From Vitellaria paradoxa (taxonomy: Eukaryota; Streptophyta; Magnoliopsida; Ericales; Sapotaceae), in contig CM034244.1 in the NCBI GenBank assembly GCA_019916065.1, positions 30,411,933-30,475,932 on the forward strand: a DNA stretch of 64,000 bases. Reading direction: 5' to 3'. This document shows, piece after piece, positions 15,660-51,754 of this stretch (position 1 is its first letter; each line of letters opens with the position of its first letter). The translations under genes and the position numbers were made by a program. The notes under the pieces are model-generated. The model saw only the letters and a program-made list of their open reading frames with translations. It was not told where the DNA came from and searched no databases.

Positions 15660-18262
15660 TGTTAGGACCTAGAATTATGGTATAATGTTTATATATTTAT
15701 TTTTATTTATTTAAATACTCATATTTTTATTTAATTTAAGTTAAATTTTTGTTTTTATTTAATTTACTGTGACAAGTTTAATTTAATTGCAAGCATGTGT
15801 AATGATAGATTATATTTATATATTGTGACATGTGTTTATGTATATAAAATATAGTGAGTGTGTTTTATTGGCTAAGGGGAAAGGCTTGTTCCTATTTTTG
15901 GACAGGGGTGGCTCGTGTGTGGCAAGGGATTAAGTGCTAACATGGCGAGGTGGCCAAAGGGTAAGAGAGGTATACTGATGGCGTATGGAAGTCTAGGGGT
16001 GTATTGATGGGGAAGGCTTATATGGGAAGCCTCTAGTGAGTTTTTATATAAGCCCCTTCACACTTAATCTTTACATTTTCCCCCTAACATCTGATTTAGA
16101 AAGAGAAAGAAAGAGAGAGAAGAACGATCATGCCATTCTTGCAAGATCATGTAAAGAAGAAGAAGAGAAGTTTCCCCTTATGCCTTTTCCGAAGCACATC
16201 CGTTCGATTTTGCGCGTAGCCTAGGGATTTTTCGTGGAGAGAAATAACCAACTTGAATTGGTAGATACACAATACACACCAATCATTTACTTGTGTAGCG
16301 CGGTAGGTGGGGTTAGCATAACTTTTCTTATTATGGAGGCGTTTAGAGTAACAAAAAGTAAGATAAAGCGAGATAATTTAAGATAATTTGTGGATTCATA
16401 ATTCGTGTAGTGAGATAAAAAGTAAATAATTTTTAGTGATTTTCAGAGTTTTTCAACGTTCGAACCCTCTATTTGTAGAAGCATGCTTGTTTGAATATGT
16501 TCATGAGTTTGTATTTGAGCCATGTTTATTTTAAATGAGATATGGAAGTTCTAAAATTTAATATTAAATGTTGTAAGGAAATGCTTGAGGGTTTTAAATC
16601 TATATTTTGGACTTATAGGGTGAGGCATGCTATTATAGTTTGTATTTATAAGTAGATGGGTAATTTAACCTATGTTCTGGACTTATTTGAGTATAAATAT
16701 GTGAAGCATGTTAATGGATTTTGTATTTATAAATGAAGAAGTAAAATAAATAAACCCATGCTTGATTTTGATAAAAGGGAATTTTCTACATATTTTGGTG
16801 TGAAAAATCTTTAGTTTTAATGTTTTAGAAATTTTTGTTGTGGTTTAAAACTCTATAAAAATTTCTAGAAAAATGAAGGTCGAAGTCTCGCGCTGCCATC
16901 ATTTAAGTTGCGGGGTATTTTGGATTTTTCAAAAAGTTGAAATCTAAGTAGCTCAAAACTTTGGATTGCTTGTGCCTAAACTGCGAGCTATTCTATTAGT
17001 GGGTTGAAACTTTGGGTTGCCTGTGCTTAGGTTGTGAGGTGTTCTATTAATGACCTAAAGCCTCTGGATGCTTGCGCTAAAGCTACGACGTCCACTGTTT
17101 TTCTTAGATCTTTAAATTTTTGAAATATTTTTTATTTTAAAACAACATGGATTGTTTAATACTATTATTATAAGGTATGAAGGTTGTTTGGGTTCTTGTT
17201 TTTGGTTAACCTTATGCCTTTTAAACATGTGATATTGCGAGTTTATGTTCGTTTATTTACTTGTTTAAACATAAGCATCTATGGGCAATATGGAACTTAG
17301 GTCCCGGATACAGTATACTTCGTAAAACTTATAAAGTAAAGGATGAACATAAGGAACCTAATCTAAGGAGAATTTTATGTTTGCTGTGTTATTGATTAAA
17401 GGACATTGATTGAAATTGATTTTTGATATTGGGGTCATGAAGGGTACAAAAAAGAGTGGGTTTGAAGGCCCAAAGGTTAAAAGTCCCGAAACTTACACAG
17501 GATAGCATACTATAACTAATAATTGAGAACCCTACAAAGTATATATACGGCTTCCAATAGGGTATATTAATACAGGGACTGCGAGACCAGTTTGCTTACT
17601 AAGGCAAGATAAGATGGATTGGAACTGCAGAACCAGACTCATGAGTACATTTGGGACTGTAAGACAATTGTACCCTACAACTTAGGTTAAGGGACTGATG
17701 AGTACATCCGGGACTGCAAGGCCAATTGTACCCTATAGTTTCGGCCTAGAGATTTGATAAGTAAATGCAAGACTGCGAAACTAATTGTACCCCACGGCTT
17801 AGCCTTGGAAATTATTTTGGGTTTAGTTCTGTGGTCACAGACTAACCTTGCAGAGTACTTGACCAATAGTATGGTATTGATTTATAAATATATACTGAGA
17901 TGTCATTGAGATGATGTATGTTGTTTTAGCATGATGATTACGGGATCATAGCTAAGTAACTATTTAATTTAGAACAGTATGATGAATGTAGACATTGTGA
18001 TATTATTGTGATATTATTAAGAGAGTTTTACTTAATTTAAAGTTGATTAAGTACTGTTTGCCTTGCATGATTAAGAAACTTATTCCTATATGCTTATTTT
18101 TGAGCACATATGGTTTAGTGCTCGCTCCCTATAGCTGATCTTACAGGAGCTGATGTTCGTGGTGGACTTGTGAGATAGAGTGACTTGTCATGATTTGTTT
18201 TACTTTTATTCATGTAATTTTGCTTTGAATATTGACTTTGGGCCGATTTGAGGCATATAGTT

Positions 18263-19046
18263 TGTAACGACCCGCATTCACATAGTACAATATTATCCAC
18301 TCTGGGATTGGTAAGCTACTTCCTAGGAGGTCACCCATCCTGGTATTACCCCCACTAGAGCACATTTAATCCTGGAGTTCCCACTGAATCTAGTGCCCTC
18401 ACGGCTTTAAAACTCGTTGTACTATATTGATATCGAATATTACATATATGTTACTTCCTTTCACTACCCAGGCAATGTGGGATAGAAGGCATTACTTTTC
18501 TGCTTCACCTCCGGTTTTACTCTCCCACAGGTAGAGTCCATCGCGGGCAAGTCCCTCACAGTCTTCCCCCCTTACAAGGCACATGTCCCCGCGTGGCCTC
18601 CTACTTCACTCTCCCACAGGCAGGGTCCTCACACGCGGGGCCCCCACACACGTGATTGTACACTTCTGGCTGGGCATTGGCTTTGATACCATTTGTAACG
18701 ATCTGCATCCCCCACAGTCTTCCCCCTTTACAAGGCACGTGTCCCCGTGTGGCCTCCTACTTCACTCTCTCACAAGCAGAATCCCTCACAGGAAGGGCCC
18801 CCATACGCGGGGCCCCCACACACGTAATTGTACACTTCCAGCTGGGCATTGGCTCTGATACCATTTGTAACGACCCGCATCCACATAGTACAATATTGTT
18901 CGCTTTGGGCTTGGTAAGCTGCTTCCTAGGAAGTCACCCATCCTGGTATTGCCCCACTGGAGCACGCTTAACCCTAGAGTTCCTACTGAATCCAGTACCC
19001 TCATGGCTTTAAAACGCGTTGTACTATATGGACGCGGGTCGTTACA
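18263..19046 (-). mobile_element. Cassandra TRIM retrotransposon (784 bp)
   Basis: Two ~182-bp LTRs (18263-18444 and 18866-19046) start TGTAACGACCCGCAT and end in TTACA. A perfect 5-bp target duplication TAGTT flanks the element (18258-18262 and 19047-19051). On the minus strand the 5' LTR (18866-19046) is followed by the tRNA-Met primer site TGGTATCAGAGCC (18863-18851). Both LTRs carry 5S rRNA-like sequence, the defining feature of Cassandra. The internal region is non-coding and partly duplicated: a second primer-site copy and a stub of LTR sequence lie at ~18672-18708. Confidence 0.9.
18916..19005 (-). pseudogene. 5S rRNA-like sequence in the Cassandra 5' LTR
   Basis: On the minus strand the sequence shows GGTTAAGCGTGCT (like the 5S box A) followed by CCAGGATGGGTGACTTCCT (like the 5S box C). 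These are the internal pol III promoter parts. The 5' third of a true 5S gene is replaced by unrelated sequence, so this is not a functional 5S gene. The left LTR carries a more decayed copy at ~18313-18403. Confidence 0.85.
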
Positions 19047-20840: not shown

Positions 20841-21124
20841 CTTATTTTATTTTTGTAATTGTACATTTATTTTTATGTTTAATATTGTATAAATATTAAC
20901 AATTTAATACATATATACTTATTTTTATTTAAGAGGTGTCTAAAAAAAATAATATTTATGTATATGTATAAACTTAACATCACTTATTTTATTTTAATAA
21001 TTGCACATTTATTTTTATGTTTATTATTGTATAAATATTAATAGTTTTATATATATACACATATATGCTTATTTTTATGTAATAGGTGCCTAAAAAAAAA
21101 GTAATATGTATGTATATCTATGTA
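20841..21124. repeat. 142-bp tandem duplication beside the viral insertion
   Basis: Two diverged 142-bp units (20841-20982 and 20983-21124) share 'cttattttat', 'catttatttttatgttta.tattgtataaatatta' (in parts) and a 'gtgcctaaaaaaaa'-type word. The end of the second unit resembles the AT-rich bases directly right of the virus (29528-29556). Confidence 0.65.
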
Positions 21125-21262
21125 ATAAAACACAACCATTGATTAGACATTTATATATGTGGCACGCGGATGGCTTCTAGGGGTACTTGAGTGAACTTGG
21201 GTAGGGGGTGTCGGTGCTGTGTCTTGGGTTGGAAGGAAAAAGTTTTTGTGTATTATATTTAA
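21124..21262. repeat. Flanking host repeat, left copy
   Basis: This 139-bp sequence abuts the left end of the viral insertion and is repeated in the same orientation at 29557-29696 on the other side. I count about 15 differences, mostly transitions. It is locally GC-richer than its surroundings ('gtggcacgcggatggc', 'agggggtgtcggtg'). Confidence 0.85.
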
Positions 21263-23076
21263 GGAGCAACCATAAAAGTCAATGTGTTTTGTAGTTTTTT
21301 AATCTTATTATCAATATCTTGTATTGGATCTTTATCTTTTAATTGAGTATTGATTTTCTTAGGAATTTCATGAGGAATAAATAAAGGTTTTTGATGTGAA
21401 TTTTGACTTATTGCAGGTTCTGATTCTTGTAAATTATTTTCAATTCTATTTAATTGATCACTAATTGTTTTAAGATTTTGATTTGTAAAGTTATTCTGTT
21501 CTAAGATTTTTTGTATATCTCTAGATGTTATATCAGATTCTGATGGTGATTTCATTTTATAAGGTGAAGCCTTAATAATTGAATTTCTATATTGAATAGA
21601 TATTTCTTCATGAGGTGGATGTGTAGATTGTTTAGTACCTTCTGATGTATTCCATTGTTGGGGTTTTTGAGTAACATTTATTTCTTTGGTAAAAGGATAA
21701 TTTATAGAATTATTGGCAGCATAATTTTCAAACCAATCAAAAAATCTAAAATGAGTTTTATAATTTTGAACATATTTGTAAAATTTTTCTCTTATTGGTA
21801 TTCTGGCAACTTCATCAAAGTTTGATAAGAACCATTCTCTTTTTTGATCATTTTCAGATGATTCGAAATCTTTCTTTAATATACTTTTATTCATAATAAA
21901 TTCTCTATCTATGACAAATATTTGAGGGTCGTCTTGCATTTGAGATTGAGTTGGGGACATATGTTCAGAAGATTTATCTTCATCATCTTTTTCTTGTTGA
22001 TTTATTTGATCCGTGTAGATAGGTTGGGGTATAGTTGATCTATTTCTAACTCTATTAAGCTTAAGAGGTTCATAATTGCTTGATGTTGGAATAGAGGAAC
22101 AAGAAGATCTCGGAGGTTGATATGATGATCTTGGAGGTTGATAAGGTTCTCTAGAATAAGAGGATCTAGGAGGTTGATGAGTTTCATTAAAATTTTTTGT
22201 TTGAAAAGGTATTTCTCCTTCTTCTTTAATTTGTAAATCAGAGAGTTTTGTAGATAAAAATTTGAGTTTGACAGATCCATTTGGGAGTTCTTCAATTTGT
22301 TGGAGTTTTTTGTTTTCTATTTTTGGAGCGGGTACTTGGTCTTCTAATTCCCATTCTATTGGGAGGTTGATATCACTCCAAAGTATGGTTTGTGGAACTA
22401 TTAAATTAGAGTTTTCCTTTTGAGTTTGGAAAAAGATTGTTTCTCCTTTAGGGCTAATGGTTTTAACTAAAGGATCCATGATAGTGGTCATAGTTTTATA
22501 ATGGATTTTATAGATTACAGCAAAAGGAATATTTTCAGGTTCCATGTCATATCCTGATGTTTGTATTTTTAATACAAGAGAGTTTAATATTCCAGTATCA
22601 TGTAAAGAAACCGGATAATTTGGAAAACAGTTAAAATATATGGGACCATTATATAAGCTAGTTTCAATAACTCCTAGTAAAGAGTCTTGAAATTTACGAT
22701 GTCTTTGATCTCTAAGACATAGTAGGATTGATGTATTTAATCCACTTCTGGTTAATGGTTGAATAGCTATTTGAACTAATCCAAAGTGAATGTATGAATA
22801 TTTTTCTTGATGTTTTCTAATAATACTAGAGTCAAGAAGTTTGATAGATTGACATTCAGAGGTGAATGGGACAGTTTGTTCGACTGTCTTGATAGAATAA
22901 TTAGAAGAAAAAGACCATTTTTTAATATGATAAACTTCTTTAATAGGAACATTCGGGATTTTCCAGTTTGATATAGGTTGTTGTAGATTTTGAATATTTT
23001 GTTCTTCTTGATTTATTATATTACTATCTTGGGATGAACTTGATGCCCTGGACATAGATCTAGACAAGAAAGACAT
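21259..23076 (-). pseudogene. Viral ORF1, N-terminal part: movement protein region
   Basis: ATG at 23076 opens 605 codons without a stop. Residues ~99-160 hold the 30K-superfamily movement-protein core (GLVQIAIQPLTRSG, then NCFPNYPVSL). This family forms tubules or widens plasmodesmata for cell-to-cell movement. Residues ~295-325 contain three QPPRSS(Y/C) repeats, and the rest is polar and disordered. The stop TAA at 21259-21261 is not viral: it arises at the junction with host DNA. In the circular genome the frame continues into the coat-protein part now found at 29527 leftwards. The start lies ~225 nt downstream of the primer site, as expected for the first ORF. Confidence 0.85.
21262..21429 (-). 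repeat. Viral terminal repeat, left copy
   Basis: These 168 bp are identical by eye to 29360-29527. They encode the same part of ORF1 (between the movement and coat domains). They result from integration of a slightly over-length copy of a circular genome and are not LTRs: they lack TG...CA ends and lie in coding sequence. Confidence 0.93.
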
Positions 23077-23300
23077 GATAGAAAAATTAAATTGTTATTT
23101 TATTTTACAAAACTTATGTAAAACTTTCACCCTAGGCCTGTCAACGATTTACGCCTAAAAACGGGACTTACAACACATTGCCCTAAACTGGCTACGCGAC
23201 TATCGGGTTTCCCCACCGAGTCAGGTTCAAGGTTTACTAAATCTTGTAAACTAAAATAAAAATTCAAAGTTTCTAAAATATCTTAATTCTCTCTACCTAT

Positions 23301-23313
23301 GGCTCTGATACCA
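23301..23313 (-). promoter_or_regulatory. Viral primer-binding site (initiator tRNA-Met)
   Basis: The minus strand reads TGGTATCAGAGCC, matching the 3' end of plant initiator tRNA-Met, the primer for first-strand DNA synthesis in Caulimoviridae. It lies between the pregenomic RNA start region and the ORF1 start. Confidence 0.9.
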
Positions 23314-23416
23314 AAAACAGCCCAGAATAACAGCCTAGAATATATCTTGTAAACATGTAGCAAGATAGTAAAGCAAGCATGACAAAATATTCAGAATAGC
23401 AAAATAAAAGCTATAT

Positions 23417-23617
23417 CTAATAACAAAATTCTTTAATTCTGTCTAAATAATATTTTTCTCTTTTTCTTAAGAAAAAATAACTTATAAATAATGATTCTAA
23501 AATTCTTGTTTGATGAATGTCAGTTTCAGACATTCTTTGTCTTGTAATAGATAAACGAGTTCTATACCAAGATAATTTTTGTTTATAATAATTCAATAAA
23601 ATCATAAGATGGAGCAA
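23417..23617 (-). CDS. Small open frame in the viral leader (66 codons)
   Basis: A 66-codon frame, beginning MLHLMILLNYYKQK, lies between the poly(A) signal and the primer site in what should be the RNA leader. Caulimovirid leaders often carry short upstream ORFs that affect ribosome movement. This one is longer than most and basic (many K/R/Y). I know no homologue, and it may be chance. Confidence 0.3.
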   Translation of the reverse strand: MLHLMILLNYYKQKLSWYRTRLSITRQRMSETDIHQTRILESLFISYFFLRKREKYYLDRIKEFCY

Positions 23618-23654
23618 AGTATAACTGATAAAAATACAGATGATGCAAATAAAA

Positions 23655-23660
23655 CTTTAT
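23655..23660 (-). terminator. Viral poly(A) signal
   Basis: AATAAA on the minus strand, about 195 nt downstream of the TATA box. As in other Caulimoviridae, a signal just after the transcription start would be bypassed once and used after a full circle, giving a terminally redundant RNA. Confidence 0.6.
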
Positions 23661-23854
23661 TAATAAACAATGTAAATACAACTTTGATACAAGAACTTAC
23701 TTGATACAAATGACTAGACTTGATACATCAGAGATAGCAGGATAAAGGATAGGAAGTTTTGAGGGAGGTGAAACAGAGAAATTTTGGTTTTCAGAAGGGT
23801 TCTGAAATTTTCTCCTAATTTCTCCGAATGCCCTCAATGTTTGCTCCCGTCTCC

Positions 23855-23862
23855 TTTTATAG
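23855..23862 (-). promoter_or_regulatory. Viral pregenomic RNA TATA box
   Basis: The minus strand reads CTCTATAAAAGGAGAC, a strong plant TATA context like that of caulimovirid full-length promoters. The start site would be ~30 nt downstream, near 23825. Confidence 0.75.
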
Positions 23863-23929
23863 AGAAGAAAATGAATCAGGCTACAGTTTTTCCCGTGATG
23901 GGTACTGATAAAGAGCCTGACTTCTTTTT

Positions 23930-24120
23930 ACAAAGATGACATAAAGTTTGGATAAATACATGAAGTTGACATAAAGCTGATGGCAATAATCTCCTTGGCA
24001 TGTGACTTGATGAATGATTGCAGGCGTGTCCGAAAAGTGACATAAAGTTTGATAGCAATAGTCTCTTTGGCAGGTGAGACTTGATGTTCTTTTGTCATAG
24101 CTTGATGAATGATTCCGGGC
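23930..24120 (-). repeat. Repeated blocks upstream of the viral TATA box
   Basis: Blocks recur two to three times: GACATAAAG (three copies), a 'GGCAATAATCTCCTTGGCA'/'agcaatagtctctttggca' block (two) and 'CTTGATGAATGATT' (two). They sit 70-260 bp upstream of the TATA box, where caulimovirid promoters carry enhancers. A regulatory role is inferred from position. Confidence 0.5.
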
Positions 24121-24145
24121 ATGTGATTCTGCAGTGGCTTGATAA

Positions 24146-24379
24146 TCAATTTTTTGCTTTTGCTTTTGTTTTCTTCTTTTCCTTGATTGGTGCTGATGGA
24201 GTAGGATTATGGATGGGAGGAAGGATACCATAGCAGTCGTCTTCATTATCATTGCCAAGATTGACTGAAGTGAAACTTTCTGCTGAATTGGAATCCTCAC
24301 TTGATTCTTGTTCTGATAAAGATTCTAATGCAGCTAGTAATTGTTGTTTTAATTCATTTTTTTGATGCTGTAGCTGCAA
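24146..24379 (-). pseudogene. Viral ORF2, C-terminal part (shifted frame)
   Basis: The open frame is Gln/Leu-rich at first (LQHQKNELKQQLLAALES, coiled-coil-like), then acidic with serines, and ends in a lysine-rich tail (KEKKKTKAKAK). It overlaps the preceding ORF2 segment by 26 bp in another frame, so a small indel probably separates them. An acidic stretch with a basic tail may be meant for nucleic-acid or coat binding, but this is inference only. Confidence 0.55.
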
Positions 24380-24743
24380 GTTTTGACATATTCTGGCTTT
24401 TTTGGAGAAGGAACTGAGGGTTTGTTGATGTTGTTAATACTGAATGTTGATGGAAATACTTGTCAATAGCCGCGGGAGTAACCCTGTCAATTTTAAATTG
24501 CTCCCACCATTTGACTTTAATTCTGCGGATGAGTGATGAAATAGTTGGTCCTTGATGAAAATATTCCCATTGGATGATCCAGGCAAGGGAAAATTGTTGG
24601 AAGAAATAGAATAGATGAGGGAATTGGTTCATAGGAAAATGAGATGGGATTTTAAATCTGTCTTGATAAATCTGGAGGCCTTGATGAGCTTGTTGGGGTA
24701 ATATCTCTGGTACTGGCCCAAACATGTTCCACCATTCGATGAA
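24354..24743 (-). pseudogene. Viral ORF2, middle part
   Basis: The same frame as the segment at 24744-25586 continues after an in-frame TAG (24746-24744). It is rich in aromatic residues (AWIIQWEYFHQ, KWWEQFK). It ends at a stop near 24354 beside the frame change. Confidence 0.6.
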
Positions 24744-25586
24744 CTATGCTGGAAGGTCTTGATGGAATTTGTTGTGGAAGTAAAACATCCAAGAATGTCT
24801 GAATGTTTTATTTTGATGATAAAAGGTGTGATACCAGGCTTTTTGATAATCCCAGTAATTATAGGTGGATGGAACAAAATGTTGAGAAAACTGGCGGAAT
24901 TGGTTTGGATGTCCTCCCCAGTCTTCAAAAGATAGGATTTTGATAATCTGACATGTTGAATAAGCAATTTGGGTTTGGTCAAATTTATCTGGATAATGTT
25001 TAAAAGATACTGATTCAGTGTCAATCAGTATAAATTCATAAAATTTTTGGGTTTTCATGGAATTTGAAGTTACAAAATGGTTGTTTGGAAGAAATACAGT
25101 TTGGAGAAGATCATGAATAGCTTGATAATTGGGTGGATTTGTAAATGGGTTTTCATATTCTTGAGGTAATCTGGTAATAATATAGGTTTGTGGTTTGGGA
25201 AAATATTGTGATTTTGATGATAGGGAAACTTGAGAAATTGGTGTGGGGTTTGCCGACACCACCACATTTTTTGATGAAGAGGCTATGGGCCCAAGAGCCA
25301 CCATAGATGATGAAGAGGGACGTGTAGCCACCTCTTTTGATGATCCAGTTGTGACTGTTTGAGCAAAGCTCTTATTAGCCACTTGGCTTAATACCTGTTG
25401 TTGTTGTCTTTCTTCTTCCATTAACTGGGTATACCAGTCAGTTGGAGATAATGGAAGGACCCTGGGAATGGTAGTTGGTAAGGGTGTGGTTTGACTAGAG
25501 GATGGTTTGATAGGTACCATGGCATATGATTCTTTTGATATTGGTTGTTGGGTTGATGAAGAGGGTCTAATAGGTTTAGGAGGCAT
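24744..25586 (-). pseudogene. Viral ORF2, N-terminal part, function unknown
   Basis: The likely start is ATG at 25586 (MPPKPIRPSS), which overlaps the original end of ORF1 (TAA at 25578-25576) by a few bases. The frame is also open upstream to an ATG at 25691, but that stretch lies over the RNase H end. The first ~110 residues are Ser/Thr/Pro/Gln-rich and probably disordered. The following ~170 are a globular, aromatic-rich domain (HPNQFRQFSQHF, YHTFYHQNKTFRHSW). An in-frame TAG at 24746-24744 ends it. Florendoviruses have an ORF2 of unknown function at this place; I recognise no domain. Confidence 0.65.
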
Positions 25587-25657
25587 GGTTTCCCTGCAAG
25601 AATTCACGGGTAAGGAAATCAGGGATGGAATTTGTTTCTCATTTGATGTATTCAATT
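25576..25657 (-). pseudogene. Viral ORF1, remnant of the extreme C-terminus in a shifted frame
   Basis: Beyond the early stop at 25658 the family-typical RNase H ending is still readable in another frame (for example IPDFLTRE). An indel in the 7-T run at about 25662-25668 is therefore the likely cause, and one further TGA is present. The original ORF1 stop would be TAA at 25578-25576. Confidence 0.6.
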
Positions 25658-26500
25658 TTATAATAAAAAAACTGATAAAATAGCTTGCCATCTTGCAAAA
25701 ATCTGTTTTGATGCAATGTTTTGAACATCTTTTTGTAAAACATGCTTGGCAGCCTTACAATCAATTCTGATTAAAAATTCTTGATTTAATAAATCACTTT
25801 GAAATTTTTGAATGCATAATACTATAGATAAAATTTCTTTTTTAATAGTGCTATAATTCTTCTGGGCATTAGTCCATGTTCCTGATGTAAACCGGACTAA
25901 TTGTTCTTGATGGTGACCAGGAAGACGTTGTTTTAGAATACCACCGTATCCTAAATCCGATGCATCAGTTTCTACAATTTTATAGGCTAGAGGGTTTGCT
26001 ATATGCAGACATGGCAAAGACTTAAGATGTTGCTTAAGTTGTTTGATAATTTGGGTATGCTGAGGGGACCATGGAGGAGGATTTTTCTTAAGCCTCTCTC
26101 TTAATGGAGCAGCAATGATACTAAGTTTTTGATAGTATTCTGAGATATCATTGAGGCTCCCTAAAAACCTCTGAAGTTGTTTTTTATCCTTAATTTCATT
26201 AGGAAATTTACTTGCAAATTCTAAGGCTCTTTCAATTGGAGTAATTGTTCCTTGATCAATGTAATGTCCAAGAAATCTTATCCTTGTTTGAAAGAGATTG
26301 ATTTTTGTTGGAGAAAGCACTAAACCATTCTTCTTTATAATATAAAGGAAAGTATTTAAATGCTTCCAATGGGATTGAATACTATTTGAGAAGATTAATA
26401 TGTCATCAATGTATACTATTGAGAAATCAGCGTATGGGTTAAAGATGTCATTCATGATTTTTTGAAATTCACTTGGAGCATTTTTTAATCCAAAAGGCAT
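25658..26500 (-). pseudogene. Viral ORF1: reverse transcriptase C-terminal half and RNase H
   Basis: From ATG 26500 (internal to the domain) the frame begins MPFGLKNAPSEFQ, has the polymerase motif YIDD at residues 30-33, and the connection region (FLGHYIDQG). RNase H follows, with acidic residues at about D179 (ETDAS), E222 and D247. It is in the same frame as the upstream ORF1 segment, from which it is separated only by a TGA at 26509-26507. The C-terminus is cut short by a frameshift. Confidence 0.9.
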
Positions 26501-26506
26501 TACATT

Positions 26507-29071
26507 TCATTCATATTGTCCAAAAGGGACAGTGAATGCTGTTTTATATTTATCTGATTCTGAGATCTGAATTTGCCAAAATCCAGATTTTAAATCAAAT
26601 TTTGAATATATTTTAGCATGTACAAGTCTTTGGAGGATGTCTTGCTTGTTAGGGATTGGATATCTTATCCACTGCAAAACATCATTCAAAGGCTTGTAAT
26701 TTATTACTAGCCGTGGAGTTCCTCTTTCTATTTCAGCATTTTTATTCACATAAAAAGCAGCACAACTCCAGGGAGATTTGGATGGTCTTATAAGTTTTTT
26801 ATCTAATAAATCTTGGATTTCTTTTTTACAATAATCCAAAAGTTCTTGATTCATTTGGACAGGTCTGGCTTTTGTCTTAATTTTTGATTCTTGAAAATCT
26901 TTGATATAAGGAAGAGTAACTATATGGCTTTTCCTATTCCAAAATGCATTTGGGATGGTGGAAGAAGCTTCTTTGATTATTTTATTTTTAAAATTTTCAA
27001 TTGCCAATTTCAGCTGGCTATCTTGAAGTTGAATTTTAATTTGTTGACATACCTTTTCTTGTTTTAGGAGCATTAAATGTTTTTCTTTTGATATGATTTT
27101 TGAGATATTATTTATTTGGGTTTTTTCTATAGCTATATCTTTTAGAATATTCAAATCTTTAATATTTGGAGGGTTAAGAAATTCAAATATAATTTCTTGG
27201 TCAAATATATTGGTAGAAATTCCTTTAGGAGATACAGTCATGGGTTGGATAAGACTTAAGAAAGGTGTTCCTAATATTACTTCTCTATTTAAATCTTTTA
27301 CTAAAATAAATGGAGTCTTTATACATATATTTTGATTACATACATGAGCTTTTGTTAATTTATATTTGACTTTTAATGGCATACCATTAGTAGATGATAG
27401 TCTTTCTTTTGTTGGTTCAAAATATTTTATGGGTACTAATCCTTCCTGTATACAGTTAAGGTCAGCACCAGAGTCAAAGAGTGCAGTAGTATTAATAGTA
27501 TATTCTTTATTAATTACAATTTTTAATTTTACATTCCATTTTTGATAAGATATCTGGGTTAATAGGAAAATATCATCTTTTTTATGTTCTTTACTATGGG
27601 TTAACATGGTTTCTTGGTCTGAGGTTGAGGCTATAGTATCCTGATGTTGATTTTTGAGAATTAATACCTGTCTTGTTAATTCTTGAATCTCTGATTTTGA
27701 TAGTCCTAATTCTTGTTTTAAAATTCTAATTTCTTTTTTGATCTCTTTTATTTCCAGTTTATTGTCTTCTATTGGAATTTTTTGTGATTTCTGAGATTGT
27801 TTAGCCTTTTTTAATATTGAATCTAGGTCATAACAGTTTTCTACAATCTTTTCTTTATTCTTCTTAGTTTGTTGAAGGTTTTCTTTTAGTTTTAATAAAT
27901 AATTTCTTTTTAATTGAGGGTCTTCTATATCTTCAATCATTTCCATAATTAATTCTTGTTCTTTGGTAATAACATTACAATGACAGTTTTGTTTGATAGT
28001 TTTACTACTAGATGAATCTTCAGATATTTCTGTATTAGATTCAGTTGATGATGTGATATTATCTATTTCAAAGTCATCTTGAGAGTTTGATTTTTCATAT
28101 TCTGATTCAGAATTATTTAACATTAATATTTCTAATTGTTTTTTGAGGTGTTCATCAATATCTAAAGAATTTATTTTACCTTTTAATGGGCAATTATTTT
28201 TATAATGTCCTATTTTTCCACATTTATAACATGTTGGGGGTATTTTCTGATTGTTAATAGGCTTTTTCGGTTTTTTCTTATGTTGGAATTGATTTGGTTT
28301 ATTTTTGTAGGGTTTTTTGTAAAAATTATCTTGACTAGGTTGTCTTTTCTTTTTATAATAGGGTATTGGTATTAATTTTTTGTGTTTTTTATGTTTTCTT
28401 GATGGAGGTAAGTTTTGTTTAGCTAATCCAAATTGTTCACAAAATGTACCTAACTCTTTATGTGATTGTGTTAATTCTCTTTGTAATCTTTGGTTTAATT
28501 GGAAATTAGTACAAATTTCAAATGCTATGTCTTTTATAGTATCTGATATATCTGGGAATGTTAAATGTTCATAAGGTATTATGCCTTCATTTTGTTCTCT
28601 TAACCTAGTTTTTACTTTTTCAGCGAATAATCTTGGTAATCCATCGATGAATTTTTCTTTCCAGAACGGGAGACGCTGGTCATCTCTCATTCCAAGTTTT
28701 GTTAAAAATGTTTCTTCATACCAGTGATAGTCTTGAAGTTTTGGACATTTTAAGTTTGTTAAGATTATGGACGATCTTTCTTCAATTTTTGATGTGTTTC
28801 TTATAAAATATTTAACAATAGAAAATATTAGGGTATTAACAGCATCTTCTATTATTGTTGAGTTATCATCTTCATCTTCAACTTTTATAGGTTCATTGAA
28901 TTCATCAGTTTTGATAGCATTTAATATATTATCTTTTTCTGATTCAGTAAGATATTTATCCCACCAAGTTTTGAGTCTTCCAGAAAATCCTGATATAAGA
29001 ATTTCTGCTACGGCTTTATCAGAACATTGTTTTTTCATTTTATAAGCACTTGCAACCATTGTCATTTCTTA
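26507..29071 (-). pseudogene. Viral ORF1: coat protein, CCHC knuckle, protease, reverse transcriptase N-terminal half
   Basis: The frame is open for 852 codons from 29065, downstream of an in-frame TAA at 29071-29069. Residues ~1-215 are coat-protein-like (SGFSGRLKTWWDKYL). A lysine-rich stretch leads to the CCHC knuckle CYKCGKIGHYKNNC (279-292). An acidic/Ser linker and a coiled coil (~430-475) follow. Next is the aspartic protease (FDSGAD near 530, ILGTPFL near 600), then reverse transcriptase (LVINYKPLND, FDLKSGFWQI). The segment ends at TGA 26509-26507 inside the polymerase domain. These proteins package and copy the viral genome. Confidence 0.92.
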
Positions 29072-29113
29072 TAATTTATTAATCTTTTGATATTCTGTTA
29101 ATCCATCTAAATT

Positions 29114-29527
29114 TCATTTATAGATTCCAGTACCTTTGAAAAATTGAGTTGGTTCAACTAATTCTTCATATTGTTGATCTGGGAAAGATGGTCTTGGATA
29201 ATAATTTTTTATTTGTTTTATATTATGTTTGTTATGGTTCCATCTGGCCATATTGATTGTTTGATCTTGAGGAGTAAAAGTTTCTAATATTTCTTCAACT
29301 TCTGTCTCAGATAATTGTGATAATGTGTGGATAGCTTTTATTGATGGAGATGGTGTTTCAGGAGCAACCATAAAAGTCAATGTGTTTTGTAGTTTTTTAA
29401 TCTTATTATCAATATCTTGTATTGGATCTTTATCTTTTAATTGAGTATTGATTTTCTTAGGAATTTCATGAGGAATAAATAAAGGTTTTTGATGTGAATT
29501 TTGACTTATTGCAGGTTCTGATTCTTG
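29114..29527 (-). pseudogene. Viral ORF1: junction of movement and coat regions
   Basis: The frame is open from the right viral end through the 168-bp repeat to a TGA at 29116-29114. It is in the same frame as the coat-protein segment to its left. The part after the repeat includes ETPSPSIKAIHTLSQLSE and an aromatic/basic stretch (YYPRPSFPDQQYEEL). The frame is also open at the segment's right end because the insertion starts within ORF1. Confidence 0.8.
29360..29527 (-). repeat. Viral terminal repeat, right copy
   Basis: Identical to 21262-21429. The right boundary is followed directly by AT-rich host sequence. Confidence 0.93.
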
Positions 29528-29556
29528 AATATATTAAAAAAATATAATATCCATAA

Positions 29557-29696
29557 AATAAAACACAACCATTGATTAGACATTTATACACGTGGCACAC
29601 GGATGGCCTCCGGGGGTGCTTGGGTGGACTTGGGTTAGGGGGTGTCGGTGTTGTGTTTTGGATTGTAAGGAAAAAGTTTTTGTATATTATATTTAA
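29557..29696. repeat. Flanking host repeat, right copy
   Basis: This is the direct-orientation partner of 21124-21262, about 89% identical. Unlike the left copy it continues into a longer repeat that ends at 30204. Confidence 0.85.
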
Positions 29697-40408: not shown

Positions 40409-41363
40409 TGTTAGAATAAAAGAAGAAGAAAAGAATTATGTATTACTATTGATGATAATATTGTATTAATAGGATTATGACTAATTTAGGATATCTAATT
40501 TAGAATACGTATCAATTTAGGATATGTATTAATTTAGGATATATATATATATATATAGGAATATTTTAGAAATAATCTAACACCCCCCGACAAACTCAAG
40601 GAGGTATAGGAGAGACCAACTTGAGTTTGGAAACCAACTAGCGGAGTTCATATGGAAGTGAGTTGAAGGAGGCACAAAGAAGCGTGTTGAAAGGTTGAAG
40701 GCGCATGGAAACGCATTGAAGGAGGTGCGGAGATGCGCGTTGTGAAAGGTTAAAGGCGCACGGAAGCGCGTTGAAGGAGGCGCGGAGAAGCGCGTTGAGA
40801 GGTTGAAGGCGCTCTGAGGCGCGTTGAAGGAGGCTCGGAGAGATGCATTGAAGGCCCATGGAAGCGCATTGAGGGGGTGCAGAGGAGGGCGTTGAATGCG
40901 TACGGAAGCGCGTTGAGGGGGGCGTAGAGGAAGGCGTTGAAGGCGCATGGAAGCGTGTTGAATGGGGCGCGAAGCAGCACTTTGAAAGTTGAAGGCGCAT
41001 AAAAGCGCGTTGAAGGAGGCACGGAGAAGCACGTTGAAAGGTTGAGGGCGCATAAAAGCGCATTGAAGGAGGCACGGAGGCAGAGGTGACACTAGAAAGA
41101 GCAACACTGATGGCCAAAGATGTGGTTGTTGGATGCTTAATCTATCCAGGATCAAAAACCTTGATCTTTGATACCATGTTAAAATAAAAGAAGGAGAAAA
41201 GAATATGTATTAATATTGATGATCAATATTGTACAACGAAACCCTATATTTATAGGGTGAATAAGAAACCTAAACTTAATAGGATTATGACTAATTTAGG
41301 ATACGTATTAATTTAGGATATACATATGTATATATGTAGAAATATTCTAGAAATAATTTAACA
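40409..41363 (-). mobile_element. TRIM-type retrotransposon (955 bp) with internal minisatellite
   Basis: LTRs at 40409-40582 (174 bp) and 41177-41363 (187 bp) start TGTTA(G/A)AATAAAAG and end AATCTAACA/AATTTAACA. A perfect 5-bp target duplication ATAGC flanks the element (40404-40408, 41364-41368). On the minus strand the 5' LTR is followed at once by TGGTATCAAAG, a tRNA-Met primer site, and a GGGGGG polypurine run precedes the 3' LTR. The internal 594 bp carry no retroviral protein but a GC-rich tandem repeat. The LTRs have diverged by small indels. Confidence 0.88.
40660..41095. repeat. GC-rich minisatellite inside the TRIM
   Basis: About eight diverged units of ~45-57 bp are built from GCGCGTTGAAGGAGGCGCGG-like and GGTTGAAGGCGCATGGAA-like words. 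Unit lengths are mostly multiples of three, so several frames stay open (up to ~190 codons on the minus strand). The composition contrasts with the AT-rich surroundings. Confidence 0.8.
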
Positions 41364-50569: not shown

Positions 50570-50725
50570 TAATATATATATATCTATACATGTAATTGCC
50601 ACTCTTGAACCCATCTCACATTCCCACTAAATTCTTCTCTCTTGGTCATCATTCACAAAGACAGGCCTTAGCCTTAGCAAGAGAAACAAGAAGAGAGCGA
50701 CACAGCGATAGAGATATATAGAGAA
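50570..50725 (+). promoter_or_regulatory. F-box gene promoter and 5' UTR
   Basis: A TATATATATATCTATAC stretch at ~50572-50588 could serve as TATA box. It is followed by CT-rich sequence and a GA-rich leader (gagaaacaagaagagagcga) that ends at the ATG 50726. The assignment is by position. Confidence 0.45.
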
Positions 50726-51754
50726 ATGAATTTTGATTCTCCGTCCACCGTCGACGAAGCTGGAAGCGAAGCCACCTCTATCTCCGCCGTCCATCCTGAC
50801 ATAGTACAAACCCACATCTTGACCAGGCTCGACGGCCCCACTCTCGCCGCCTTCGGCTGCGCGTCGACCCAGCTACACGCCCTCTCCACCGACGACGAAC
50901 CCTGGCGCCAAATCTGCAACGACACGTGGCCATCAACGGCGGACCCCCTCGTCCAGAGTCTCATCTCCGCCTTTCGGGGCGGTCACCGGTCGTTCTACTC
51001 CGACTCTTCCCCCACACTCCACCACCACCGGAGGCCGCCGCAGCCGAATCGCCACCGTCCGCCCCCGAGAACCTCGGAGCTCATCTCCGCTGTCGACATA
51101 CACTACCAAAACAAGCTCATATTTTCCAAGGTAAACGAGATGGAGACCGTGACCGGCTGGTTCCTCTGCTCGCCGTTCCGGGTCGACCTCCTCGACCACA
51201 AACAGACGGTGCCGGCGCTGGTGAAGTTCAAGGCCGGGGAAGAAACTTCCCAATTGAACTTACAAGACAACCTGACTCTCAGCTGGATCCTAATCGACCC
51301 GACCCAGAATCGGGCGGCGAACTTCTCGAGCCTCAGGCCGGTTTCGGTGGACCGGCACTGGCTGACTGGCGACATACACGTCCGGTACGTGACGATTCTC
51401 GCCGGAGAGAAGAGAGGCGAGTTGGTGCAGTGCGGGGCAGTGGTGACCTGCGGTGGGAAGGAAGGAGAGGAGTTACAGGTGAAGGAGGTGAGCTTGCAGC
51501 TGGAGGACATGGAGGGGAAGAATCTGAGCGGGAGGGAGAGTTTGGTAATTTTTCAGGAGGCCATGGTAGGTGGGGAGAGAAGGAAAGGGAAGAGAGGGGA
51601 GGAGAGAGAGAGGTACGAGGATTACCTGAAGATGAAGAGAGAGAGAAGAGAGAGAAAGGAGAGAAGAGAGAGGAGATTAGACATGGCCTGCATGGCCACC
51701 GGGGTCACCATTTTCGTAGCATGGGTGTTTCTTCTGTTAAGAAGATTCAGTTGA
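50726..51754 (+). CDS. F-box protein (At2g27310/At2g36090-like), membrane-anchored
   Basis: This is an intact single-exon gene of 342 codons. Residues ~22-68 form an F-box (HPDIVQTHILTRLDGPTLAA, then LHALSTDDEPWRQIC), the Skp1-binding part of an SCF ubiquitin ligase, which passes substrates to ubiquitination. A long middle region (WFLCSPFRVDLL, LTLSWILIDPTQNRA, RYVTILAGEKRGELVQCGAV) matches my memory of this plant F-box subfamily. It is followed by a highly charged K/R/E stretch (~285-318) and a hydrophobic C-terminal helix (~320-337) ending in LLRRFS, a probable tail anchor. The substrate is unknown. The gene is GC-rich compared with its flanks, and its charged stretch comes from a purine-only GA tract. 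Confidence 0.88.
   Translation: MNFDSPSTVDEAGSEATSISAVHPDIVQTHILTRLDGPTLAAFGCASTQLHALSTDDEPWRQICNDTWPSTADPLVQSLISAFRGGHRSFYSDSSPTLHHHRRPPQPNRHRPPPRTSELISAVDIHYQNKLIFSKVNEMETVTGWFLCSPFRVDLLDHKQTVPALVKFKAGEETSQLNLQDNLTLSWILIDPTQNRAANFSSLRPVSVDRHWLTGDIHVRYVTILAGEKRGELVQCGAVVTCGGKEGEELQVKEVSLQLEDMEGKNLSGRESLVIFQEAMVGGERRKGKRGEERERYEDYLKMKRERRERKERRERRLDMACMATGVTIFVAWVFLLLRRFS

What the first reader, a model, noticed from the sequence alone, without database searches (positions are those of the whole stretch)
21262..29527. Nearly complete endogenous pararetrovirus with a permuted, slightly over-length genome
The insertion contains every expected caulimovirid module on one strand, and its two ends repeat the same 168 bp, so the full 8098-bp circle can be read from it. 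Most endogenous copies in plants are fragments or rearranged clusters; a single co-linear unit is unusual. The lineage looks florendovirus- or petuvirus-like by gene order, but protein-level placement is open and it may be an undescribed species.
Basis: partly seen in the sequence, partly recalled or inferred. Interest (0 to 1): 0.88.

Follow-up and report, generated by a model that had tools for sequence, protein, structure and literature searches.

The report
Degraded plant pararetrovirus, permuted on integration
A plant chromosome carries a decayed, rotated copy of a florendovirus-like DNA virus, one of 139 polymerase matches found in that genome, and the ends of its relatives suggest that such virus DNA is likely captured by chromosome repair, often at the spot where the virus starts copying itself.

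Summary
Window 21262-29527 is one co-linear caulimovirid insertion on the minus strand; 21262-21429 and 29360-29527 are the same 168 bases, 8,098 apart. Gene order is MP, coat/zinc knuckle, protease, RT, RNase H in one long frame, then a second frame, as in florendoviruses. This copy is decayed: four in-frame stops, rare or absent in other copies, and a further break in ORF2. It is not alone: the RT-RNase H piece has 139 matches in the host genome, some in arrays. It sits between two units of a host tandem repeat, lacking about 27 bp of AT-rich spacer, without target duplication. The useful extra result comes from its relatives: of 39 copies sampled just upstream of the tRNA-Met primer site, 20 stop within -15 to +5 of it, nine of them directly at (TA)n; 3 more break in the next ~155 bp. 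The window copy instead runs through the primer site, so it was likely captured from a circular or head-to-tail form. Placement against named petuviruses and florendoviruses could not be tested. Verdict: a probable new florendovirus-type species, a known kind; its relatives sharpen an older integration proposal.

The parts
21262..29527 (-). Whole insertion: 8,266 bp, one co-linear, circularly permuted viral unit with 168-bp terminal repeat
21262..21429 (-). Terminal repeat, copy at the virus 3' end of the insertion (inside the movement-protein part of ORF1)
   Evidence: 168 of 168 identical to 29360-29527
29360..29527 (-). Terminal repeat, copy at the virus 5' end of the insertion
21259..23076 (-). 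ORF1, first part: viral movement protein (PF01107) and DUF7588 (PF24496); cut by the insertion end and continued in the frame 29533-29114
29069..29533 (-). ORF1, continuation after the permutation point; in-frame stops at 29114-29116 and 29069-29071
   Evidence: stop in 0 of 15 other copies at each site
26507..29065 (-). ORF1, middle part: DUF7746, caulimovirus coat domain (PF22909), CCHC knuckle, retroviral protease, N half of reverse transcriptase; ends at an in-frame stop 26507-26509
   Evidence: stop in 1 of 28 other copies
25658..26500 (-). ORF1, last part: C half of reverse transcriptase and RNase H
24149..25691 (-). ORF2 (no Pfam relative; lower limit taken from the frame of copy L009 mapped to the window), broken by a stop at 24744-24746 (0 of 27 other copies) and a second break near 24354; 16 of 39 matched ORF2-type frames from other stretches are open for 534-540 codons
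23301..23900 (-). Intergenic region: TATA-like box at 23861, AATAAA at 23661, tRNA-Met primer-binding site 23313-23301
   Evidence: primer-site word as printed in PMC13308828 and PMC1899175; functions inferred
21110..21261 (+). Host repeat X, left unit (pre-existing tandem repeat)
   Evidence: 36 matches genome-wide
29528..29696 (+). Host spacer remnant and repeat X, right unit

Best explanation
The insertion at 21262-29527 is a decayed endogenous pararetrovirus of florendovirus-type gene order whose 8,098-base genome lies permuted with a 168-base repeat at its ends, and it was likely joined by end joining into a break in AT-rich host DNA from a circular or head-to-tail viral molecule. Shown: the gene content and order; the exact 168-bp repeat; intact continuity across the tRNA-Met primer site; position between two units of a host tandem repeat with about 27 bp of AT-rich, partly palindromic spacer missing compared with two other dimers of that repeat, and no target-site duplication; stops that are private or nearly so. 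Shown for its relatives: a strong excess of 3' ends at the primer site, often running into (TA)n, and scattered 5' ends in some copies. Inferred: the usual substrate is a reverse-transcription product whose free end is the minus-strand start at the primer site, captured by repair of breaks at AT-rich sites, with TAT microhomology; the window copy belongs to those in which that end had already been closed (circle, concatemer or array) before a random cut, so start and end overlap by 168 bp inside the movement-protein gene. After capture it decayed as host DNA.
For: Domains and order. Exact repeat. Primer site continuous at 23313-23301. Host dimer and missing spacer. Copy number and arrays. Primer-site ends: of 39 loci (the 42 rows minus the window's own and two short duplicate rows) 19 run through and 20 break at -15 to +5; 3 of the 19 break at +50 to +80 (in the walk L050 and L060 look broken through one-base indels but run through). 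Nine of the 20 enter (TA)n directly, six enter other viral sequence, five other DNA. Under an even spread over 176 bp, 20 of 23 in 21 bp has p about 4e-16; a (TA) run of 10 bp or more lies within 22 bases of 0.5% of random host sites in the window; L057/L058 and L062/L064 share flanks, so p is indicative. Of the 20 large stretches (isolated, high-identity matches chosen from the 139), six hold a copy whose 5' side stops early, at window positions 28651, 28333 (there joined to another viral piece), 27941, 27604, 21948 and 21691, and five of the six end at the primer site on the 3' side. Variants shared between copies are mostly at third codon positions, e.g. RT 51 of 60 and MP 69 of 94, so the sequence diversified as a selected virus.
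Against: On the 5' side only 7 of 39 sampled loci break near the primer site (about -15 to 0) and 32 run through, judged by eye; three of the seven are one array, and the sample is ranked by similarity, so arrays dominate it. At least four kinds of these 5' breaks (L086-type, L093, L108, L120) adjoin other viral pieces, not host (TA)n. L017 ends about 100 bp short of the primer site, in (TA)n. About half of the 39 3' loci do not stop at the primer site. The window copy itself does not end at the primer site nor in (TA)n. A private stretch of about 30 bp lies just upstream of its primer site, which could mean that two molecules were joined there. No long reads, no second individual and no truly orthologous empty site were available.
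Confidence: 0.72

Rival explanations
1. Two viral fragments were joined at the primer site during one repair event: one ending at the primer site, one starting there. The 168-bp overlap would then be a chance overlap of two pieces, not over-length capture from a circle.
For: About 30 extra bases just upstream of the primer site, in none of the fetched loci, with an 11-base word that also occurs in the leader; virus-virus joints at the primer site are seen in six of the 39 loci (L041, L059, L062, L064, L065, L067).
Against: The two halves meet in register with the primer site intact, and 19 of 39 other copies also run through it, without this filler.
Confidence: 0.2
2. The copy was cut out of an existing head-to-tail array in the genome and re-inserted by host recombination, so no virus particle or new reverse transcription was involved.
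For: Arrays with about 8.0-8.1 kb spacing exist on several contigs.
Against: Of 36 X matches only the two beside this element lie on its contig, so the junctions look unique (the other X sites were not checked for viral neighbours, except L029 and L030); the copy has its own private substitutions, 22 in 4,980 compared columns. Neither point excludes it.
Confidence: 0.15
3. A Ty3/gypsy-type LTR retrotransposon read as a virus.
For: RT and RNase H families are shared with Ty3/gypsy elements (family knowledge).
Against: Movement protein and caulimovirus coat domains, no integrase family, no LTR pair, no target duplication; PDB match better to 8r0s than to Ty3.
Confidence: 0.02
4. Assembly artefact: a viral read wrongly joined into the contig.
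For: Junctions cannot be checked with reads here.
Against: The contig is chromosome-sized, the copy carries private stops, and the junctions interrupt a host tandem repeat in a way that other dimers explain.
Confidence: 0.03

Closest known systems
Endogenous florendoviruses (Geering et al. 2014, PMC4241990)
   Same: 8.1 kb genome in the 7.2-8.5 kb range; one long polyprotein frame MP-CP-zinc finger-AP-RT-RH; second ORF without known relatives; tRNA-Met site; greater-than-unit-length and arrayed loci; (TA)n flanks in part of the relatives
   Different: No named florendovirus sequence could be compared; the window copy is permuted with a 168-bp repeat inside the MP part and lies in AT-rich, not (TA)n, DNA
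Petuvirus (Petunia vein clearing virus)
   Same: One large MP-CP-AP-RT-RH polyprotein (PMC4241990, passages) and head-to-tail endogenous arrays (PMC10377300, passages)
   Different: Told apart from florendoviruses by lacking the second ORF (PMC4241990, passages); here a second ORF is present and its shared variants are mostly at third codon positions
Endogenous rice tungro bacilliform-like sequences (Kunii et al. 2004, PMC526188)
   Same: Ends preferentially in the intergenic region and at discontinuities of the open circle; AT-repeat flanks; open circular DNA proposed as substrate (passages read)
   Different: Different virus group; here the preferred 3' end is placed to within about 20 bp, at the tRNA primer site

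Membership tests
Florendovirus | Genome 7.2-8.5 kb | tested here: met
   8,098-bp period
Florendovirus | ORF1 polyprotein MP, CP with zinc finger, AP, RT, RH1 in this order, 205-216 kDa | tested here: met
   Domains in order in the window pieces; frame of 1,870-1,872 codons in 11 of 139 matches; mass about 215 kDa is an estimate from length
Florendovirus | ORF2 of 45-58 kDa, other frame, no outside homologue | tested here: met
   534-540 codons stop to stop in 16 of 39 matched frames, at or slightly over the range by estimate; two weak unnamed public relatives only; no Pfam family; one weak PDB profile match set aside
Florendovirus | AP-RT-RH groups with florendoviruses and apart from Petunia vein clearing virus | tested here: inconclusive
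   RT-RNase H tree puts it beside a Vitis vinifera sequence, support 99/95, but no named reference of either genus is in the tree; viral contigs gave none
Florendovirus | tRNA-Met primer-binding site | tested here: met
   23313-23301
Petuvirus | Single ORF | tested here: not met
   Second ORF present
Petuvirus | Polymerase groups with Petunia vein clearing virus | not testable with these tools
   No reference sequence obtained
Metaviridae (Ty3/gypsy) | Long terminal repeats | tested here: not met
   Only the 168-bp repeat, inside the MP frame
Metaviridae (Ty3/gypsy) | Integrase domain | tested here: not met
   No integrase family in any of the eight ORF pieces
Caulimoviridae | RT-RNase H of caulimovirid type with movement protein and coat domains | tested here: met

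The most novel reading that the evidence does not exclude
Florendovirus-type DNA enters plant chromosomes through a nearly site-specific route without an integrase: the minus-strand start at the tRNA-Met primer site acts as the reactive end, its TGG|TAT edge pairs with (TA)n at broken host DNA, and unfinished minus strands give 5'-truncated copies. The window copy is the exception that shows a second route, capture of closed circles or concatemers cut at random.
Probability: 0.45. Interest if true: 0.62.

Novelty: new member of a known kind. Interest (0 to 1): 0.42.

Why it matters
Pararetroviruses have no integrase yet fill plant genomes; a recent review calls the mechanism of capture speculative (PMC10377300, section 3.1, read). 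A genome with 139 polymerase matches, many near-identical, whose ends can be read to the base, makes the capture-of-replication-intermediates idea directly testable: it predicts fixed 3' ends at the primer site, scattered 5' ends and microhomology with (TA)n. The window copy is a clean example of the other class, permuted and over-length, in a target whose empty form can be read from host repeats.

Tried and rejected
LTR retrotransposon: rejected (no integrase family, no LTRs). The 168-bp repeat as the terminal redundancy of the viral RNA: rejected, because the predicted TATA box and polyadenylation signal lie at 23861 and 23661, far from it. The repeat as a plus-strand priming site: no purine run of 13 or more at either end; the four that exist are elsewhere. 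The flanking 150-bp repeat as a target duplication or LTR: rejected, it is a host repeat with 36 matches and tandem dimers elsewhere. Viral contigs for reference caulimovirids: none. PHROGs gave nothing of use. A 5S-RNA-like look of 18261-19032 (recall only) was not confirmed by Rfam. Host identity: the neighbouring F-box gene is nearest to Camellia, Sarracenia, Actinidia and Diospyros, 66-68%, apart from one Handroanthus protein that ranks third at 49%, so an Ericales plant is inferred; species unknown. A literature search for 12-chromosome Ericales was malformed and not answered.

Searches behind statements on print. Neither their listings nor the passages read showed primer-site-precise ends for florendoviruses; PMC526188 reports the general idea for rice; PMC4241990 describes a peach 1.2-mer that runs to a tRNA-Met consensus and on into another copy. 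Papers seen: PMC4241990 abstract, passages, section 4 part 1 of 2, section 10; PMC9794742 abstract and section 9; PMC13308828 abstract and passages; PMC10377300 passages and section 12 (headed 3.1); PMC5766536, PMC5491270, PMC8256270, PMC526188, PMC1899175 passages only. Jakowitsch et al. 1999 seen only as cited in PMC526188.
Full report
What was claimed. A single, nearly complete endogenous pararetrovirus at 21262-29527 whose two ends repeat 168 bp, so that an 8,098-bp circle is implied.

Check. The repeat is exact: 21262-21429 equals 29360-29527, 168 of 168 bases, offset 8,098 (independently). The ORFs that carry viral domains all lie on the minus strand. Pfam finds, in virus order, movement protein and DUF7588; DUF7746, caulimovirus coat domain, CCHC knuckle, retroviral protease and the first half of RT; the second half of RT with two RNase H models; then a second ORF without any family. 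The movement-protein frame is cut by the insertion end at 21262 and goes on at the other end of the insertion in the frame 29533-29114, as expected for a permuted circle. The tRNA-Met-like primer site is at 23313-23301, with a TATA-like box at 23861 and AATAAA at 23661 upstream of it.

State of the copy. ORF1 has in-frame stops at 29114-29116, 29069-29071 and 26507-26509; ORF2 has one at 24744-24746 and a second break near 24354, probably a frame change. Among other fetched copies with letters at the four stop sites, a stop is present in 0 of 15, 0 of 15, 1 of 28 and 0 of 27. So this copy is decayed. Age is only bounded: 0 of 168 differences between the end repeats gives at most 1.8% divergence at 95%, and 22 private substitutions in 4,980 compared columns give 0.44%; with assumed rates of 2e-9 to 1.5e-8 per site and year these bounds mean at most about 0.3 to 4.4 million years (the rates are assumptions, and private substitutions may partly be viral).

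Family. The host genome (667 Mb, 71 contigs) holds 139 matches to the RT-RNase H piece, a lower bound; 11 of the 139 lie in an uninterrupted frame of 1,870-1,872 codons, and several contigs carry arrays with successive matches about 8.0-8.1 kb apart. ORF2-type frames are open for 534-540 codons in 16 of 39 matched frames; the six of 534 run to the end of their stretch. Variants shared between copies are concentrated at third codon positions: RT 51 of 60 (28 copies) and MP 69 of 94 (10 copies); for the coat (16 copies) and ORF2 (26 copies) pieces, whose printed labels are shifted by one, 101 of 155 and 60 of 86. This says that the differences arose in a replicating virus under selection, and that ORF2 is a real gene. 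A tree of 127 RT-RNase H rows (119 of the 120 listed homologues, seven other own sequences and the window) puts the window copy, with two decayed own copies, beside a Vitis vinifera group (support 99/95); five other own sequences form a separate, distant group.

Insertion site. On both sides lies a host repeat, X, 21114-21262 and 29547-29696, 85-91% alike. X has 36 matches in the genome, including five further tandem pairs with starts 171-200 bp apart. In the two such dimers that were read, the spacer contains an AT-rich, partly palindromic stretch of about 27 bp that is missing here, exactly where the virus sits. There is no target duplication and at most one base of microhomology at the left junction. 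This is the picture of break repair, not of an integrase.

How relatives end. Of the 42 rows that match the stretch just upstream of the primer site, all but the window's own and two short duplicates, 39 loci, were read downstream. 19 of 39 run through the primer site; 20 of 39 break between -15 and +5; 3 of the 19 break at +50 to +80. Nine of the 20 enter (TA)n directly, six enter other viral sequence (L041, L059, L062, L064, L065, L067) and five other DNA. Two pairs share their flank and are not independent (L057/L058, L062/L064). On the other side, 39 of the 40 places matching the leader (all but the window) were read upstream: by eye 32 run through and 7 break at about -15 to 0, three of these being one array; most of these 5' breaks adjoin other viral pieces. 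In the 20 larger stretches, six copies stop early on the 5' side at scattered points, one of them joined there to another viral piece, and five of the six end at the primer site on the 3' side; the sixth, L017, ends about 100 bp short of it in (TA)n.

Reading. The primer site is where minus-strand DNA synthesis starts in this virus family (established knowledge); the open circle has a free end there. A fixed 3' end and scattered 5' ends are what unfinished minus strands would give. I infer that many copies were captured as replication intermediates at AT-rich breaks. The window copy runs through the primer site and was cut elsewhere, so it likely came from a closed circle, a concatemer or an array; a private stretch of about 30 bp just upstream of its primer site leaves open that two ends were joined there.

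Known or new. The idea that endogenous pararetroviruses enter from the open circle, with ends in the intergenic region and AT-repeat flanks, was put forward for rice and tobacco (PMC526188, passages read), and (TA)n flanks for florendoviruses (PMC4241990). The gene plan fits florendoviruses. What is added is a probable new species, a well-read insertion site, and primer-site-precise ends. The element itself is a new member of a known kind.

Noticed in passing
L078, L079, L080, L081, L082: At least two further florendovirus-like groups in the same genome, about 59-62% identical to the window copy in RT-RNase H, some in frames of about 1,440 codons.
   Followed up: partly
L039-L077 and L085-L123, just upstream of the primer site: The few bases immediately before TGGTATCAGAGCC differ between copies more than their surroundings, by eye; cause unknown.
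   Followed up: no
window 23314-23360: A stretch of about 30 bp just upstream of the primer site is found in no fetched locus and shares an 11-base word with the leader.
   Followed up: partly
contig C50 of the host genome: A 527-kb contig carries a long array of copies, RT spacing often about 8.0-8.1 kb.
   Followed up: no
L009:3068-4687: ORF2 has a conserved core shared at about 35% identity with two unnamed public proteins (P0121, P0122), with no known family.
   Followed up: partly
window 18261-19032: Direct repeats about 600 bp apart, 86-90% alike, possibly a short terminal-repeat element; no Rfam match.
   Followed up: partly
window 40654-41079: G+C-rich minisatellite, 53-bp unit, in an A+T-rich neighbourhood.
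   Followed up: no
window 50723-51751: F-box gene with an open frame on the plus strand, nearest to Ericales proteins.
   Followed up: yes
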